Of a stretch of DNA of 27,879 nucleotides, positions 1 to 27,456 are shown in pieces (within the stretch, counting starts at the first letter, position 1; each line of letters starts with the position of its first letter). The stretch covers positions 1-27,879 of the forward strand of contig CANQHM010000013.1 in assembly GCA_947623845.1 (NCBI GenBank), written 5' to 3'. The DNA comes from an uncultured Bacilli bacterium (lineage in GTDB: Bacteria > Bacillota_I > Bacilli_A > RF39 > UBA660). Under the pieces are notes generated by a model, which did not search any database, was not told the origin of the DNA, and saw nothing but the letters and a program-made list of their open reading frames with translations. Made by a program: the position numbers and the translations under genes.

Positions 1-526
1 CATGATCAATTAATACAGCATTTGCCCATTCGTGATTATTGTAATCATACCATTTTTCTTTATAATCTGCGATATATATTTTATTGTTATCATATCTTAT
101 TGGAATTAATCCCTGAAATAAATCTGGATAGTTTGCCCCACTATCATCTATGTATGGTTTAGTTATAAATTTAACTGTACATTTATTAGTAGTTTTAGTA
201 GTTAATGTTAATTCCCAAGCATCATTATTAAAGCTGGCTTTAATACCTGGTTTATCACATTGAATATTATCAAAGACATAACCATCATTTTTACCAGGAA
301 ATTCAGCTTTAGTTTCTCCATCTACTAAGACCGATAAATAAATATCTCTTTTCTTAAATTCACCTACTGTGTTAAAGACTAATTTTTGAGTGTGTCTTAC
401 TTGGTATAGTGCATATGTACTCCCTACTGCTATAATTAATAAGAGTGTTATAATACTATATAGTATCTTATTTCTATTTCCTTTCTCAATTTTCTTTAAT
501 TCTTTTTCGGGATTAAATCTTCTCAT
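1..526 (-). CDS. Membrane-anchored surface protein, lectin/FGE-like family, N-terminal part (cut by window edge)
   Basis: The reading frame opens at ATG 526, seven bases after an AGGAG site (536-540), and runs off the left edge after 175 codons, so only the N-terminus is seen. Residues 1-20 are charged. Residues 21-41 form one hydrophobic segment ending STYALY, a signal-anchor or uncleaved signal. A small Cys-containing domain follows (C90 and C116 by alignment), then the start of the region that leads into the C-terminal lectin-like domain in the paralogues. Over its whole visible length it aligns without gaps to the protein at 21412-23166, with roughly 85% identical residues by eye. The promoter at 569-597 carries a palindrome in its spacer and the gene is divergent from the XRE gene at 642. 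Whether its C-terminus has the same variable-looking tail cannot be seen here. Function is inferred only: a cell-surface binding protein. Confidence 0.85.
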   Translation of the reverse strand, partial: MRRFNPEKELKKIEKGNRNKILYSIITLLLIIAVGSTYALYQVRHTQKLVFNTVGEFKKRDIYLSVLVDGETKAEFPGKNDGYVFDNIQCDKPGIKASFNNDAWELTLTTKTTNKCTVKFITKPYIDDSGANYPDLFQGLIPIRYDNNKIYIADYKEKWYDYNNHEWANAVLIDH

Positions 527-21411: not shown

Positions 21412-23166
21412 TTAATCTACTCCATCTTGGGCGGTGAGAACAATACGAAAACTTTCAATATCGTGTGTGCCTCCACTAAAACCCATAAAAGCAAAAATGC
21501 CACCCTTTGATTCATCCTTAGTATAACCTCCACGACGGAACCAAGGCCATTTAAAAGTATTACCCATGAATATATAAGAGGCGTAATCACCATTCCATTC
21601 TCCTAGACTTTTCCCAAAATTTGCTAACGTTTCTCTTGTTGCATCTCCTAAATGGCCTCTTCCGTGGGTATATTCGCTATCACTATATTCGTATAAATCA
21701 TAGTATTTTCCATTTGGTTTGTTATTTATATCAAATCCACTGTACATATATTCTATGTCTGTATCATCTTGTTTTTTTTGAACACCCATTACATATTCCC
21801 ACATGCCACCACTCATGTCATATATTCCATAAACATTGCCCGTAGTGGAAGCATTTACACCTTTTTCATTCCACTTTCTTCCATCTGGGCATACCGCAGG
21901 AGAACCATCATTGGGGTTATATTGTGTCTCATCGCTTATAGAAGTACCGACACATCCGGTTGCCGTACCTCCTCCAGGAGTACTAGAACCACCACCATAT
22001 GAGACATTATTTGTCCATACTTCACATTGTTCAAATGAAGTATCCGCTATATTACAAGTATTTTCATCTTTGTATATTCCATATACACTCTGAGTTAAAT
22101 ATGCAACAGCACCCCATTCCATATTTTTCATCATATGGGTATCTATTTCATTATTATTTAAATCGTACTTTGTTGCTGTTTTTAATTCAATGTTTCTTGT
22201 AGCATTAAATATTGTACTTACTGTTTTTATACTCATACTTGTCTTATTTGGTAATATAGTTATTTCACTAATAATATTATTTTTTCTACCACTAGCATCA
22301 GTCGGATCACTTGGTTCAAACTTTCCTACCCATATGCCTCTTAGCTCAGTATTACCAAAAGTGAATGCTGGATGAGTATACCAATTACCATTTTCAGCAT
22401 TAATACATGTTTCTTTCCCATTGCTTGCTGTACTACAACTTACTTCCCCAGTTGTTTCAATAGTATTTTCAAATTTAATATTTATTAATTGTTTGGGTTT
22501 TCCCTCATTATTAACATTCCATAACTCGTATTTATATCTTGGTATCCATACATACATTTGAAGGATGTCATCCTCTTGTATCTCAGTACCAATATTTAAC
22601 TTTCCATCAGTGTAAAACTTATTCATTACTTCAGGATTAGTATGATCTATAAGGACTGCATTCGCCCATTCATTATTGTTATAATCGTACCATTTTTGTT
22701 TATAATCTGCGATATATATTTTATTATTTTCATATCTTATTGGTATTAATCCTTGGAATAAATCTGGATAATTTGCTCCACTTTCATCCATATATGGTTT
22801 AGTAATAAATTTAACTGTACATTTATTAGTAGTTTTTGTAGTTAATGTTAGTTCCCAAGTATCATTATTAAAACTAGCTTTAATACCTGGTTTATCACAT
22901 TGTATATTGTCAAAGACATAACCATCACCTTGATTTGGAAATTCATTTTGCGTTTTACCATCTACTAATACTGATAAATAGATATCCCTTTTCTTAAATT
23001 CATCAACAGTATTAAATGCTATTTTTTGAGTGTGGCGTACTTGGTATAGTGCATAGGTACTTCCCACTGCTACAATTAATAAGAGTGCTATGATACTATA
23101 TAGTACTTTATTCTTATTACCTTTCTTTATTTTACTAAATTCTTTTTCAGGGTTAAATTTTCTCAT
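21412..23166 (-). CDS. Surface lectin/FGE-like protein with DGR-type variable C-terminus
   Basis: 584 residues. Basic start (MRKFNPEKEFSKIKKGNKNK), signal-anchor helix 21-41, small domain to about 125 with C90 and C116, then a large domain (about 130-580). It contains VYGIYDMSGGMWEYVMG (445-461), the counterpart of the NVxGLYDMxGNVWEW core of FGE-sulfatase/C-type-lectin folds. The last 40 residues (541-578, bases 21546-21433) have the layout of DGR target variable regions: PW-x-x-RGG, a variable stretch, GG-I-FAF, a second variable stretch, SFR-x-VL. C371, C381, C405 and C426 may form disulfides. The start is ATG 23166, seven bases after AAGGAG. The promoter carries a palindrome and the gene is divergent from an XRE gene. 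It is close kin of 1-526 and, over residues 130-580, of 25498-27456. Probable role: surface ligand binding, inferred. The product lacks any sulfatase-modifying context. Confidence 0.85.
   Translation of the reverse strand: MRKFNPEKEFSKIKKGNKNKVLYSIIALLLIVAVGSTYALYQVRHTQKIAFNTVDEFKKRDIYLSVLVDGKTQNEFPNQGDGYVFDNIQCDKPGIKASFNNDTWELTLTTKTTNKCTVKFITKPYMDESGANYPDLFQGLIPIRYENNKIYIADYKQKWYDYNNNEWANAVLIDHTNPEVMNKFYTDGKLNIGTEIQEDDILQMYVWIPRYKYELWNVNNEGKPKQLINIKFENTIETTGEVSCSTASNGKETCINAENGNWYTHPAFTFGNTELRGIWVGKFEPSDPTDASGRKNNIISEITILPNKTSMSIKTVSTIFNATRNIELKTATKYDLNNNEIDTHMMKNMEWGAVAYLTQSVYGIYKDENTCNIADTSFEQCEVWTNNVSYGGGSSTPGGGTATGCVGTSISDETQYNPNDGSPAVCPDGRKWNEKGVNASTTGNVYGIYDMSGGMWEYVMGVQKKQDDTDIEYMYSGFDINNKPNGKYYDLYEYSDSEYTHGRGHLGDATRETLANFGKSLGEWNGDYASYIFMGNTFKWPWFRRGGYTKDESKGGIFAFMGFSGGTHDIESFRIVLTAQDGVD
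21433..21546 (-). other. Candidate DGR variable region (VR) of the 21412-23166 gene
   Basis: The corresponding tail of the second surface gene, with the same framework. Synonymous differences from the 25507-25623 copy in framework codons (such as GGAGGT against GGTGGT, TTTTTGCTTTT against TCTTTGCTTTC) show that the two are not recent copies of one template. Confidence 0.5.
22641..23166. repeat. Long dispersed repeat, second copy (first copy 1-526)
   Basis: The 5' 526 bases of the two surface genes align base for base with a constant offset of 22640 and no indel, differing by scattered substitutions. Both are in the same orientation, so recombination between them could delete or duplicate the 22.6 kb between, or convert one gene to the other. 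Confidence 0.8.
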
Positions 23167-23196
23167 ATACAAGCTCCTTACTATTATTATTTTTAT

Positions 23197-23267
23197 TTAC
23201 AAAATAATTATACGACAAAATATACCGGTAATGCAAGTACCTTATTTTTAAATTCATTATTTTGTAA
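23197..23267. promoter_or_regulatory. Divergent control region between surface gene and XRE gene
   Basis: The surface-gene promoter reads on the minus strand TTGCAT (23236-23231), 18 bases, TATAAT (23212-23207). TACCGGTA (23223-23230), a perfect palindrome, sits in the spacer next to the -35. A perfect 12-base inverted repeat TTACAAAATAAT (23197-23208) / ATTATTTTGTAA (23256-23267) flanks the whole promoter, which would suit looping or two repressor sites. The XRE gene at 23294 is the likely regulator. Confidence 0.7.
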
Positions 23268-23293
23268 CATTATTGTAAAGAAGGAGATATAAA

Positions 23294-23509
23294 ATGATTA
23301 AACTTAAAATTAATGAATTATTAGCAAAGAATAATAAAACTAAATATTGGTTATGTATGCAAATGAATATTACTTATCGAAATTTAAATAAAATGATTAG
23401 AGGTGAAACTACCTCTATATCATTTAAGTATATTGAAGAATTATGTAAATATTTAAATTGTACTCCTAATGATTTAATAGTAATTGAAAAAGAACTTACA
23501 AAATCGTAA
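23294..23509 (+). CDS. Small XRE-family HTH regulator, divergent from surface gene
   Basis: 71 residues consisting of one Cro/C1-type helix-turn-helix of the short YozG-like kind: KINELLAKNNKTKYWLCMQM, recognition helix around TYRNLNKMIRGE, then YIEELCKYLNCTPNDLI. The ATG follows AAGGAGATATAAA. It is divergent from the surface gene at 23166, as the XRE gene at 642 is from the surface gene at 526, yet the two regulators are clearly different in sequence, in line with their different operator palindromes. Predicted to repress the neighbouring surface gene (inference). Confidence 0.88.
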   Translation: MIKLKINELLAKNNKTKYWLCMQMNITYRNLNKMIRGETTSISFKYIEELCKYLNCTPNDLIVIEKELTKS

Positions 23510-23535
23510 GATCCTTTCATTCGAAAAAAGTTTAG

Positions 23536-23565
23536 TTACATTTTTTGTAAATTTGTGTGTATAAT
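23536..23565 (+). promoter_or_regulatory. Promoter of the small RNA at 23572
   Basis: TTACAT (23536-23541), 18 bases, perfect TATAAT (23560-23565), 7 bases before the first base of the folded RNA. Confidence 0.7.
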
Positions 23566-23571
23566 ATATTT

Positions 23572-23668
23572 AGGGACCAAAAAAGAGATACATTTGATTA
23601 TGGCTAGTTAGATGTTTCTCGGTCCAAAGTTTTCCAAGAAACACCTATTCACTGCTGTTTCTTTTTTT
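23572..23668 (+). ncRNA. Unidentified small RNA or orphan attenuator leader
   Basis: The transcript from about 23572 begins with a long hairpin: GGACC (23574-23578) with GGUCC (23621-23625) and, inside, GAGAUACAU with AUGUUUCUC (23585-23593, 23612-23620), loop of 18 bases. It ends in a terminator AAGAAACA / UGUUUCUU (23636-23643, 23656-23663) with seven U. UGUUUCU at 23613-23619 could instead pair with AGAAACA at 23637-23643, giving two mutually exclusive folds as in attenuators. A second small AGUC/GACU hairpin follows. No frame of note is present. The IS1182-type element starts at 23704, so any gene it once controlled has been separated or lost. I recognise no named RNA family. Confidence 0.55.
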
Positions 23669-23773
23669 AGTCTTTTGACTGATAACCTTTTATTTTTTAT
23701 AAAAAAGGGGATGTTAGAAAATAAGTAATTATTTTCTATACATCTTCTTTTTTTATAAAATTTTAAAAAAAGG

Positions 23774-23801
23774 CCCATAAACTTAGAGTTTATGGGTTTT
23801 T
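23774..23801 (+). terminator. Terminator inside the IS, upstream of the transposase
   Basis: CCCATAAAC (23774-23782) and GTTTATGGG (23788-23796) pair around TTAGA, followed by five T. It blocks outside transcripts from entering the transposase gene, a known protective layout in IS elements. Confidence 0.85.
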
Positions 23802-23837
23802 GTGATACAATACTTTTGTCTAGAAAGTTGGTATCAC

Positions 23838-25448
23838 ATGAATAATTTTACTATAAAAAGGACTATTTTTCAATTTCCTTCAGCTACGTGCTGTAAGGAA
23901 TATGAAAAAATAGATAAATTTATAGATATTTTGCAAAAATCAGGAATTAATCAAATTATAGAAAATGTAAATCAAAGACAAAAAAAATGTAAAGGGAGAA
24001 ATAGTTATAATCCATATAACATGATGGCTACAGTATTATATTGTTTTTCAAAATTTAGAAGTTCAGTTAGAGAATTAGAAGAACTATGTTCCACAGATTT
24101 AAGGGTTATATATTTGATGGAACAAAATGAACCTAGTTATGCTACTTTTTGCGATTTTATTAACAATTATATTAAACCATATTCTATGGAAATTTTTACG
24201 TTAATAACAAAAACTATAATTAAGGAATACAATATAAACATTGAAACTCAATATATAGATGGTACTAAAATAGAGGCTAATGCTAATAAATATAATTTTG
24301 TATGGAAACCTAAAACATATCATAGAAATTTGGATTTAAAAATTAAAGATTTAATAAAAGAAATGGACTTAAAATATGAAAATACAAAAAATATAAAAGC
24401 AGAAGAATTTATTATTTTAATAAACAATTATGTTGAGATAAATAATATTAATTATTATGATATTCCTGTTGGAAAAGGCAATAGATTAACTAAACCACAA
24501 AAAATAATTAAAAAAGCTTATGAATATTTAAATAAATTAACAGAATATGAAGAAAAAGAAAAACTTTGTGGTGAGGAGAGAAATTCTTATTATAAAACTG
24601 ATGTTGATGCAACAGCTATGGTATTAAAAGAAGATTATTATTCTAAATTAAGTCATGATTTTCATGCTGCATATAATACACAAGTAATTGTATCGAGTGG
24701 ATTAATATTGATGTATGGAATATTTCAAGAAAGAGATGATCAGAATACATTAATTCCAATGTTAAAAAGATATTACAAATCATATGGGAAATATCCAGTT
24801 AAACTATGTGGTGATTCTGGCTATGGAACTTATGCCAATTATGAATTTTTAAATAAATACAATATTGGAAATTATTTAAAATTTAATGCTTGGAATGGGG
24901 AGTCATCTGGGAAAAGACCAAAATTATTTTTCTTTGAAAATAATAGTTTTAAATGCCTAAATGGAAATGTTGGAAAATACATTTTTACTAAAACCCATTC
25001 AAGATATTCTGATTCAAAATTTTATCAATTCATTGGTTGTAATAATTGTAATTATTCCTATAAATGTAAAGAATACCTAAAGGACAAATCCCAAAATTTT
25101 AGAAATGCAGAACTAAGCATTAAATATGAAACTTACAAAGAGGAAGCGAGAAAAAATTTATTAAGCATAGAAGGAATAGAAATTAGAATAAATAGAAGTA
25201 TTCAGGTTGAAGGAACTTATGGACAGATAAAACAAAATATGAATTATACAAGATTTAGAAGAAGAGGAATTGATAGTGTGGAGTGTGAATTTATGTTAGA
25301 ATGCTTGGGTGTTAATCTTAGAAAACTATTTAGAATTTTTGATAATTATAATTCAATAAAAAAAAGTTACTGGGAAAAACCTTCTATTTTACAAAAAGAA
25401 GTTTTCCCAGTTGTAAAGCAAAAAGAAAAGAAGATGTCAAGAAAATAA
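23838..25448 (+). CDS. IS1182-family DDE transposase
   Basis: 536 residues from ATG 23838. The frame is open to GTG 23802, but that lies at the T tract of the terminator and has no ribosome site. Family marks: YNPYNMMATVLYCFSKFRSS in the N-terminal domain, YIDGTKIEANANKYNFVWKP with the first catalytic Asp, VKLCGDSGYGTYANYEFL with the second, a Cys cluster (GCNNCNYSYKCKEY), and VEGTYGQIKQNMNYTRFRRR with the catalytic Glu. It cuts and joins the element ends. It is intact with no frameshift, so the element may be active. Its codon use is AT-rich like the host's. Confidence 0.93.
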   Translation: MNNFTIKRTIFQFPSATCCKEYEKIDKFIDILQKSGINQIIENVNQRQKKCKGRNSYNPYNMMATVLYCFSKFRSSVRELEELCSTDLRVIYLMEQNEPSYATFCDFINNYIKPYSMEIFTLITKTIIKEYNINIETQYIDGTKIEANANKYNFVWKPKTYHRNLDLKIKDLIKEMDLKYENTKNIKAEEFIILINNYVEINNINYYDIPVGKGNRLTKPQKIIKKAYEYLNKLTEYEEKEKLCGEERNSYYKTDVDATAMVLKEDYYSKLSHDFHAAYNTQVIVSSGLILMYGIFQERDDQNTLIPMLKRYYKSYGKYPVKLCGDSGYGTYANYEFLNKYNIGNYLKFNAWNGESSGKRPKLFFFENNSFKCLNGNVGKYIFTKTHSRYSDSKFYQFIGCNNCNYSYKCKEYLKDKSQNFRNAELSIKYETYKEEARKNLLSIEGIEIRINRSIQVEGTYGQIKQNMNYTRFRRRGIDSVECEFMLECLGVNLRKLFRIFDNYNSIKKSYWEKPSILQKEVFPVVKQKEKKMSRK

Positions 25449-25497
25449 ATCATCTATTTTCTAACATCCCCTTTATCATGTTTATTAATTTAATTAA

Positions 25498-27456
25498 CTA
25501 GGCTGCAGATAAGACGGAACGGAATGAATGATTTGTGTTCGTGCCACCATAGGCCCAAAAGAAAGCAAAGACACCAGCAGTATTGTCACCAAAGTAACAA
25601 CCACCGCGTGCAATCCAAGGACATCTTTCACTAGAAGTTTCGGCAGAAAAGCGCGTGTAGTCTCCATTCCATCCACCAGTATCGTTTCCATATGTTAATA
25701 ATATTTCTCTAGTAGCATCTCCCAAATGTCCACGTTCTTGTGTCGTATTTTCATCATCAAATGTATACAAATCATAATACTTAGATTCAGGTAGTGATGA
25801 TGATTGAAATCCACTACTCGCTAAATATAATCCTCCACCTGTTTGGTTGACAGTTGCGCCCATTACATATTCCATATCTCCTCCAACCATATCATATACT
25901 CCATACATGTTTCCAGTAGTACTCGCTTTTACTCCTCCAGTATTCCATTGCTTATCAGGATCACATTCTGCAACAGTTCCAGCTTTAGTGTTATATTTTA
26001 TTGCTGCATTTACACTTTCGCCCACACATCCTGTGTATGTTCCCCCATATTTCCACATACCGCTGTCCCCTGTACCTTGAACTGTATTATTAATCCATAC
26101 TTCACATGTGTCAAACGGCATTCCTTCAATATTACATGTTTTTTTATCTTTATATATTCCATATACACTTTGAGTTAAATATGCTACCGCACCCCATTCG
26201 CTATTCTTTGCCGTATGAGTGTCTATTTCATTAACATTTAAATTATACTTGGAAGATTTTTCTAATTCAATGTCTCTTGTAGCGTTGAATATAGTGCTTA
26301 CTGTTTTCGTACTCATACTTGTTTTATTTGGTAATATTGTTATTTCTCCAATATTAGAATTTTTTCCAATTTCATCCTCTGCATCGCTTGGTTCAAACTT
26401 TCCTACCCAAAATCCTTTAAGTTCTGTATTACCAAAGGTGAAAGCAGGATGAGTATACCAATTTCCATTTTCTGCATTTTTACAATCTTCTAATACAGTA
26501 CCATTCTTCATATCAGTATAGGTACAACTTACATTACCGGTAGTTTCTGTATCTTTTTCAAATTCAATATCTATTAATTGTTTTTCAACACTATCTCCTG
26601 CATTAGCATTAAATAATTTATATCTGTATCTTGGTATCCAGACATACATTTGAAGGATATCATCTTCGCTTACTTCTTGATTTATTTTTAATTTATCACC
26701 ATCATAGAATTTAGCTTTAGTAGTAGGATCAGTATAATTTATAAGGACGGCATTCGCCCATTCATTATTGTCATAGTCATACCACTTTGCATCAACATTA
26801 GCAATATAGATTTTACCATCATTAAAATATACTGGTATCATACCTTGATATAATTCGGGAGCATTAGGTTCTTGTACATAGAGTTTCATATCTTCTTCAC
26901 TGTCAACATTTACTTTACCTTCAAAAGAAGCATTTTGATTATAATCTTGAGGCATATTTAATTCTTGAAAATCAATAGTTAATTTATAATATTGTTTTGC
27001 TCCTTTAACAGGCCCTGGAATATTTACTGCTAAATACATTTCATTATTTTGAACACTATCGGTATTTATATAACCCTCTACTTTTAAACCATCCTCTTTA
27101 GGAGTTTCAAAAGAAGCATCAGGATATTCTTCTAAAGTGTATTTTAAATCTCTTCTTACAAAATTATTGGTTATTTCACTTAATTTAATATTATAAGTTA
27201 TTGGATCATCTAAAGTACTAGTATTTTCCACACTAAAGGTTTTAGAATCACTTGAACCTGGTTTAACATTTAATAAAGATATATAATTATCATCTACAAA
27301 AGATAATTCTAACTTACCTACTTTAAAAGAGTTTTCTAAAGCTTCATCATTACCTAATATTCTAGCATGAAAATAAGCATAAGATACACTAATAGTTAGT
27401 ACTATTAATAATAAGACTACTCCTCCGATAATATAATTTTTGGTATTATTTTTCAT
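25498..27456 (-). CDS. Surface lectin/FGE-like protein with TasA-like N-terminus and DGR-type variable tail
   Basis: 652 residues. Signal or anchor helix 9-29, then about 150 residues resembling the TasA/camelysin fold (ISVSYAYFHARILGND, LELSFVDDNYISLLNVKPGS, TFSVENTSTLDDPITYNI). From residue 200 it is homologous to the 21412-23166 protein through to the end (ELYQGMIPVYF, EDDILQMYVWIPRYRY, NWYTHPAFTFGNTEL, YGVYDMVGG, GHLGDATREIL). The tail 612-650 (bases 25623-25507) keeps CPW-x-x-RGG, AGVFAF and SFR-x-VL, but differs from its paralogue at most positions between. This tail DNA is visibly GC-richer than the rest of the gene and uses C-ending codons (GTC, TTC, GCC, TAC). The same head domain is thus carried on a different stalk. 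The ATG at 27456 has AGGGA upstream. The promoter at 27539-27568 holds a third palindrome. The gene ends 23 bases from the IS. Confidence 0.85.
   Translation of the reverse strand: MKNNTKNYIIGGVVLLLIVLTISVSYAYFHARILGNDEALENSFKVGKLELSFVDDNYISLLNVKPGSSDSKTFSVENTSTLDDPITYNIKLSEITNNFVRRDLKYTLEEYPDASFETPKEDGLKVEGYINTDSVQNNEMYLAVNIPGPVKGAKQYYKLTIDFQELNMPQDYNQNASFEGKVNVDSEEDMKLYVQEPNAPELYQGMIPVYFNDGKIYIANVDAKWYDYDNNEWANAVLINYTDPTTKAKFYDGDKLKINQEVSEDDILQMYVWIPRYRYKLFNANAGDSVEKQLIDIEFEKDTETTGNVSCTYTDMKNGTVLEDCKNAENGNWYTHPAFTFGNTELKGFWVGKFEPSDAEDEIGKNSNIGEITILPNKTSMSTKTVSTIFNATRDIELEKSSKYNLNVNEIDTHTAKNSEWGAVAYLTQSVYGIYKDKKTCNIEGMPFDTCEVWINNTVQGTGDSGMWKYGGTYTGCVGESVNAAIKYNTKAGTVAECDPDKQWNTGGVKASTTGNMYGVYDMVGGDMEYVMGATVNQTGGGLYLASSGFQSSSLPESKYYDLYTFDDENTTQERGHLGDATREILLTYGNDTGGWNGDYTRFSAETSSERCPWIARGGCYFGDNTAGVFAFFWAYGGTNTNHSFRSVLSAA
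25507..25623 (-). other. Candidate DGR variable region (VR) of the 25498-27456 gene
   Basis: Framework residues are identical to those of the paralogue's tail (PW, RGG, G-FAF, GGT, SFR, VL), while about twenty positions between them differ. The codons at the differing positions are mostly NNY (for example ATT, TGC-type, TTT, GAC, GCC, TAT, AAC, CAT), as expected if a template had AAY codons there. No reverse transcriptase or template repeat is present in the window, so the assignment rests on pattern only. Confidence 0.55.

What the first reader, a model, noticed from the sequence alone, without database searches (positions are those of the whole stretch)
21412..27456. Two lectin/FGE-fold surface proteins with tails that look like DGR-diversified variable regions
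The C-terminal 40 residues of both proteins keep an identical framework (PW..RGG, G.FAF, GGT, SFR.VL) while most positions between differ, at the exact place where diversity-generating retroelements mutate C-type-lectin targets. The 25498 copy's tail is GC-richer than its surroundings and its differing codons are mostly NNY, as AAY-template codons would give. DGR-driven surface diversification in a gut-type low-GC Firmicute with an array of targets would be notable.
Basis: partly seen in the sequence, partly recalled or inferred. Interest (0 to 1): 0.78.

Follow-up and report, generated by a model that had tools for sequence, protein, structure and literature searches.

The report
Lectin tails rewritten by a retroelement
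Two neighbouring surface proteins of an uncultured gut-type bacterium end in hypervariable lectin tails of a kind that, in related bacteria, a chromosomal reverse-transcriptase system copies from a template and mutates at adenines in many scattered genes.

The parts
25498..27456 (-). Gene B, 652 aa: N-terminal hydrophobic segment, TasA-like domain, FGE/C-type-lectin domain with variable tail
   Evidence: ORF; PF12389 24.7 bits over cut-off 22.5; model pLDDT 85.2; fold matches
25510..25620 (-). VR-like tail of B (P613-L649), aligned codon by codon with the G002 template
   Evidence: A mismatches 17/26, non-A 31/85, p 0.013; 9/9 NNY at the AAY columns of the G002 template, 9/11 at majority columns; GC3 0.35 against 0.16
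25504..26847 (-). FGE/C-type-lectin domain of B (residues 204-651)
26896..27321 (-). TasA/camelysin-like beta domain of B (residues 46-187)
21412..23172 (-). Gene A, 586 aa from the TTG: N-terminal hydrophobic segment, another N-terminal module, same lectin domain
21436..21546 (-). VR-like tail of A (P543-L579), probably an old relic
   Evidence: A mismatches 16/26, non-A 45/85, p 0.5; NNY 6/9, p 0.28; GC3 0.27 against 0.19, p 0.2
2..526 (-). Start of a third paralogue, cut by the window edge
   Evidence: 88% identical over 300 nt to the matching part of A; ORF open at the edge

Best explanation
A and B belong to a large family of surface-type proteins whose C-terminal FGE/C-type-lectin tail is the variable region (VR) of a host-encoded diversity-generating retroelement (DGR). 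Mechanism: a chromosomal cassette elsewhere in the genome (template repeat, MutS_I-like protein, bAvd, RT) reverse-transcribes the template with errors at adenines, and the cDNA replaces the tails of scattered target genes in trans. AAC/AAT codons of the template become NNC/NNT, so exposed residues change while the framework stays. Tails not rewritten for long drift at every position and become relics. Shown in relatives: the same-genus cassette with VRs on other contigs (G002), adenine-directed differences in many dispersed genes (G163). Shown here: framework, fold and N-terminal module of B. Inferred: that the window's genome has or had the cassette, that B was written more recently than A, and that the tails bind ligands at the cell surface or on TasA-like fibres.
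For: G002 cassette and template; its VRs L049 18/33 A against 18/102 non-A, p 8e-5, and L043 19/33 against 27/102, p 0.0015. FGE-type templates at 15 of 30 RT loci fetched from the family (14 by the rule). G163: 15 of 39 tails with 290 of 570 A cells but 39 of 1500 non-A cells changed, on 12 contigs, none on the RT contig. Fold: TaqVP, TvpA and Mtd among the best matches. B: A-bias p 0.013, NNY 9/9 p 0.0027, GC3 p 0.0018. G001: NNY 188/260 against 0.45 in bodies; 30 of 30 tails GC-richer than their bodies.
Against: No RT in any of the 24 ORFs listed for the window and no template-like frame; window genome not held. G001 has only a prophage-type RT with its own template, and its 32 matches to a template-like peptide all lie in frames of 210 aa or more. 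A fails all three tests; the window tests are small and uncorrected, and B's NNY result falls to 9/11, p 0.043, with another choice of columns. Tails also occur in 7 of 12 genomes without an RT hit. G160 gave no fresh set. Over all 30 G001 tails, template C positions are mismatched as often as A positions (0.66 each), as drift would give.
Confidence: 0.82

Rival explanations
1. Both window tails are relics: ancestors were DGR-diversified, but in this genome the cassette is lost and the tails now evolve by ordinary mutation and selection.
For: No template or matching RT found in nearest genome G001; A shows no trace and B only moderate traces; 24 of 39 G163 tails are drifted; tails persist in 7 of 12 genomes without an RT hit.
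Against: B's GC3 and NNY excess and GC3 of 0.54 in G001's L001 and L008 suggest writing not long ago; MAGs are fragmentary, and G019 shows a template-like frame without an RT hit.
Confidence: 0.3
2. The tails vary by ordinary positive selection or gene conversion among paralogues, without any DGR.
For: Framework codons of A and B differ at synonymous sites; there are many paralogues to recombine (44 matches in G001); some fresh G163 genes are also recent duplicates (upstream identity 78-100%).
Against: Neither gives 290/570 A against 39/1500 non-A changes relative to one noncoding template next to an RT, nor the template in G002.
Confidence: 0.1
3. The prophage-type DGR seen in G001 (L004) diversifies this family.
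For: It is the only RVT_1 hit of the nearest genome, and its TR/VR pair is perfect: 22/34 A and 0/63 non-A mismatches.
Against: Its template matches its neighbouring target, which ends LGLAPAFCL and does not resemble this tail.
Confidence: 0.04

Closest known systems
TaqVP, Thermus aquaticus DGR variable protein (PDB 5vf4)
   Different: 21% identity in the aligned part; B adds a TasA-like N-terminal domain; here one template serves many dispersed genes (G163)
TvpA (Treponema denticola) and Mtd (Bordetella phage BPP-1)
   Different: Mtd is a phage protein with its cassette alongside (PMC6642488, passage); here host chromosome and remote targets
Multi-target and trans-acting DGRs: cyanobacteria (PMC7517822), Thiohalocapsa PB-PSB1 (PMC10907252), multi-VR DGRs (PMC6642488); passages seen in all three
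   Same: Remote VRs matching a template at non-adenine sites; 28.6% (271 of 948) of DGRs with several VRs in PMC6642488
   Different: Gut-type Bacilli with small genomes; FGE lectins, some fused to a TasA-like domain; 15 or more closely matched dispersed genes in G163 plus a graded set of relics
TasA/camelysin (PF12389, PDB 8aur)
   Different: B carries a C-terminal lectin domain; fibre assembly of B is untested

Membership tests
DGR variable (target) protein | C-terminal C-type-lectin/FGE fold | tested here: met
DGR variable (target) protein | Cognate template in the same genome with mismatches at template adenines | tested here: inconclusive
   None in the window; genome not held. Met in G002 and G163; none found in G001
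DGR variable (target) protein | DGR reverse transcriptase in cis or trans | tested here: inconclusive
   No RVT_1 in the 24 listed ORFs of the window; rest of genome not held. Present in G002 and G003; G001 has only the prophage type
DGR variable (target) protein | Third-position pyrimidine at template AAY codons | tested here: inconclusive
   B 9/9 (p 0.0027) or 9/11 (p 0.043) depending on columns; A 6/9 (p 0.28) or 8/11 (p 0.13)
DGR variable (target) protein | Variation in the tail between strains | not testable with these tools
   Genome collections hold one genome per species; no reads
DGR cassette (G002) | RT, Avd and noncoding template together | tested here: met
   RVT_1 60.8 bits, bAvd 65.4 over cut-off 40, MutS_I 49.3 over 20.6; template upstream
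TasA/camelysin family (PF12389) | Curated Pfam match of the N-terminal part | tested here: met
   B 24.7 bits, cut-off 22.5. No Pfam match in A at E up to 0.1
TasA/camelysin family (PF12389) | Assembly into fibres | not testable with these tools
   Needs an experiment
FGE-sulfatase enzyme family (Pfam) | Match to the curated sequence family | tested here: not met

The most novel reading that the evidence does not exclude
In this lineage of small-genome gut Bacilli one chromosomal DGR acts as a genome-wide repertoire generator: a single template repeatedly rewrites, in trans, the ligand-binding tails of dozens of dispersed surface lectins, some carried on a TasA-like fibre domain, and abandoned tails are kept as a frozen repertoire, so that one genome holds a standing library of fresh and old binding specificities.
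Probability: 0.45. Interest if true: 0.82.

Novelty: new variant of a known kind. Interest (0 to 1): 0.64.

Why it matters
PMC8144416 (passages) places DGRs tied to abundant gut Firmicutes in clades that are almost exclusively viral. A host-encoded DGR with at least 15 closely matched target genes in a 1.6 Mb genome, together with a graded series from fresh to relic tails, would show how a bacterium builds and keeps a repertoire of binding proteins. Fusion to a TasA-like domain suggests diversified fibre-borne adhesins, which is directly testable. In G163, tail GC3 and third-position pyrimidine fall steadily with distance from the template, so they may serve as a clock for the time since last rewriting.

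Tried and rejected
A template in the window: no repeat of the tails; the motif W[FVILM].[RH][GS][GN] occurs only in A and B themselves. Adenine-masked diagonal scan of all tails against the loci then held: swamped by A-rich sequence; among the best rows only L015/L021 and the group L027/L028/L033 were real relatives. One shared template for A and B: rejected, 11 of 18 shared residues use different codons. Prophage DGR of G001 as the writer: rejected. G160 as a second fresh example: not confirmed; of 18 tails fetched beside two templates, the closest to one template has 26/96 non-A and 23/36 A mismatches, the closest to the other 21/101 and 5/31. G003's chromosomal DGR has another template type (ending VRPSS) and was not pursued. 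RT presence as a strict predictor of tails: weak, 12 of 12 RT-positive against 7 of 12 RT-negative genomes. Mapping variable residues onto the ligand face: the model is not among the files in the box. Structure of A: low confidence. Literature: the listings showed no paper on a TasA-fused DGR target or a many-target chromosomal DGR in gut Bacilli; the lists are capped, preprints and most subscription papers are not held, and Wu 2018 is not held.
Full report
Observation. The window is 28.7% GC with housekeeping genes: PolC- and DnaE-type polymerases, an EngA/Der-type GTPase, an IMS-type polymerase, a HemN-like radical SAM protein and SpoVIF. Two large minus-strand ORFs, A 21412-23172 and B 25498-27456, are separated by a 1765-bp insertion sequence. 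A third paralogue starts at 2-526. In the last 40 aligned residues 18 are the same and 22 differ; of the 18 only 7 share a codon. B's tail is 48.0% GC against 31.3% in the rest of the gene, in the top 0.17% of 123-nt windows.

Family. A protein search found 5947 significant relatives among 7999 scored candidates, 120 of them listed. In an alignment of 45, the two blocks covering B 601-640 are the most variable 20-residue blocks of the protein, while W614, R617, G628 and R646 are kept in 42-45 of 45.

Kin of the window. In the genome collection 3 loci were confirmed, all of one MAG, an uncultured Bacilli bacterium, isolate Lapin-030 bin6 (G001). The window's DnaE is 76% identical to that of G001, 72% to G003, 64% to G002, and at most 55% in the other rows shown (350 of 386 family genomes matched at E up to 1e-200). 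So the window comes from the genus of G001-G003 or close to it.

Target array. G001 (1.2 Mb) has 44 matches to B. From the 34 loci then held, 32 distinct ORFs matched; two without this kind of tail were dropped, leaving 30. All 30 tails have a higher GC (0.37-0.55) than their bodies (0.28-0.35). The excess is partly synonymous: pooled GC3 is 0.28 in tails against 0.15 in bodies (window copies included), and in G001 F, V, Y, N and H codons are far more often GC-ending in tails, whereas A and P codons are not. It is strong in some tails (L001 and L008 0.54, L014 0.46) and absent in others.

The retroelement in the genus. G001, G002 and G003 each have one RVT_1 hit. In G001 it is a prophage-type DGR with TR and VR of 97 nt, 22 of 34 adenines and 0 of 63 other bases changed, and an unrelated target. 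In G003 it is RT, a bAvd-like protein below its cut-off and a MutS_I-like protein, with a template of another type. In G002 the order is template, MutS_I, bAvd, RT, beside ORFs that I recognise as housekeeping genes such as pnp, rpsO, scpA/B and ftsY (names recalled, no family search run). The G002 template reads SWFKRGGNYGNGANAGVFNFNRNTGAVNTNNSSRGVV, the framework of the window's tails with Asn at many variable places. Its VR partners sit on other contigs: L049 with 3 of 43 non-A and 9 of 17 A mismatches in the best 60 nt, and 18/102 against 18/33 over 135 nt (p 8e-5); L043 27/102 against 19/33 (p 0.0015); L042 weaker, 50/102 against 23/33 (p 0.045); L040 did not align in frame in that scan.

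Spread. The G002 RT matched 101 of 193 family genomes at E up to 1e-3, 26 of them at E up to 1e-70 by my count of the listing; the weaker matches probably include other RT classes. Of 30 RT loci fetched, 15 show an FGE-type Asn-rich template (14 by the stricter rule), one of them two. Pieces were 2-4 kb, so others may have one outside the piece held.

Writing in trans. A template-like peptide gave 2-49 matches in 12 of 12 RT-positive genomes. In G163 (1.6 Mb) there were 49: the template on the small RT contig C49 and 48 others, many in ORFs of about 500-570 aa. I fetched 39 of the 48. Over 138 nt (38 A, 100 non-A), 15 of 39 have 0-6 non-A and 17-22 A mismatches, together 290 of 570 A cells against 39 of 1500 non-A cells; they lie on 12 contigs, none on C49 (contigs). 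At changed adenines the VRs hold G 158, T 87 and C 45 times. One template adenine near the 3' end is changed in all 15, G in each row, as expected if the homing-initiation copies of TR and VR differ (IMH and IMH*, PMC6642488 passage). Between the 15, the 82-88 nt upstream are on average 88% identical (78-100%), non-A tail positions 95.3%, A positions 49% (105 pairs); so some are also recent gene duplicates. The other 24 form a continuous series up to 57/100 non-A mismatches. Along it GC3 falls (Spearman -0.89, n 39), and third-position pyrimidine at AAY codons falls from 1.00 in the 15 to 0.62 in the last two. I read these as relics written long ago or from older templates. G160 did not supply a fresh set.

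Placing A and B. Codon-aligned to the G002 template, B differs at 17/26 A and 31/85 non-A positions (p 0.013); at the nine AAY columns of that template all nine B codons end in C or T (p 0.0027), but with columns chosen by majority of 13 templates it is 9/11 (p 0.043). A gives 16/26 against 45/85 (p 0.5), 6/9 (p 0.28) and 8/11 (p 0.13). GC3: B 0.35 against 0.16 (p 0.0018), A 0.27 against 0.19 (p 0.2). Among 32 tails B ranks 7th and A 19th in GC3. These tests are small and not corrected for multiplicity, and they cannot fully separate DGR writing from selection on the same residues. In G001 the NNY share at these columns is 188/260 against 0.45 in bodies (p 1e-18), but only 0.72-0.74 even in its six GC3-rich tails, below the 1.00 of fresh G163 tails; so the genus template may hold other codons, or no tail there is truly fresh. 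Over all 30 G001 tails C positions of the template are mismatched as often as A positions (0.66 each), and more than A at third positions (0.78), as drift would give.

Associations that are not clean. Tails also occur in 7 of 12 genomes without an RT hit, 0-12 matches each. G001 has no matching template: 32 matches to a template-like peptide, all in frames of 210 aa or more. Both may be losses or assembly gaps.

How it works. Inferred for this genome: the cassette lies elsewhere; mutagenic retrohoming replaces tail DNA; AAY codons keep stops from arising; exposed residues change and the fold holds; proteins are exported by an N-terminal hydrophobic segment, and B may sit in or on TasA-like fibres. 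Use as an adhesin repertoire (host glycans, neighbours, phage decoys) is inference.

Known or new. Multi-target DGRs and action in trans are known: PMC6642488 (passages) reports 271 of 948 DGRs with multiple VRs and an atypical case of 91 TR-VR pairs; PMC10907252 and PMC7517822 (passages) report remote or trans targets. The mechanism is known. New, as far as the listings show, is the combination: a chromosomal cassette in small-genome gut Bacilli, many dispersed targets with graded relics, and a TasA-like fusion.

Noticed in passing
window 23707-25471: Insertion sequence (DDE_Tnp_1_6 transposase 23802-25448, 17-bp perfect outer inverted repeats, 1765 bp) between A and B; its right end lies 26 bp past the end of B's stop codon.
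   Followed up: partly
window 2-526: Start of a third paralogue with the N-terminus of A, cut by the window edge.
   Followed up: no
L004:1219-3573: Textbook prophage-type DGR in the nearest genome G001: 97-nt TR and VR, 22/34 A and 0/63 non-A mismatches, target ending LGLAPAFCL.
   Followed up: partly
L035 (G003:C63): Second chromosomal DGR of the genus with a template of another type, Asn-rich and ending VRPSS; its targets were not sought.
   Followed up: no
L037:12359-12718 and L035:2649-3020: A short MutS domain I protein stands next to Avd and RT in both chromosomal cassettes (PF01624 above cut-off in both); its role is unknown to me.
   Followed up: no
L071 (G177:C46): Two nearly identical FGE-type templates about 420 nt apart beside one RT.
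   Followed up: no
window 21871-21993: The most GC-rich 123-nt stretch of the window (0.504) is an internal Gly-rich loop of A, not its tail.
   Followed up: no
G019:C3:7910-8044: Template-like short frame (82% identical to the query peptide) in a genome without an RT hit: lost RT or assembly gap.
   Followed up: no
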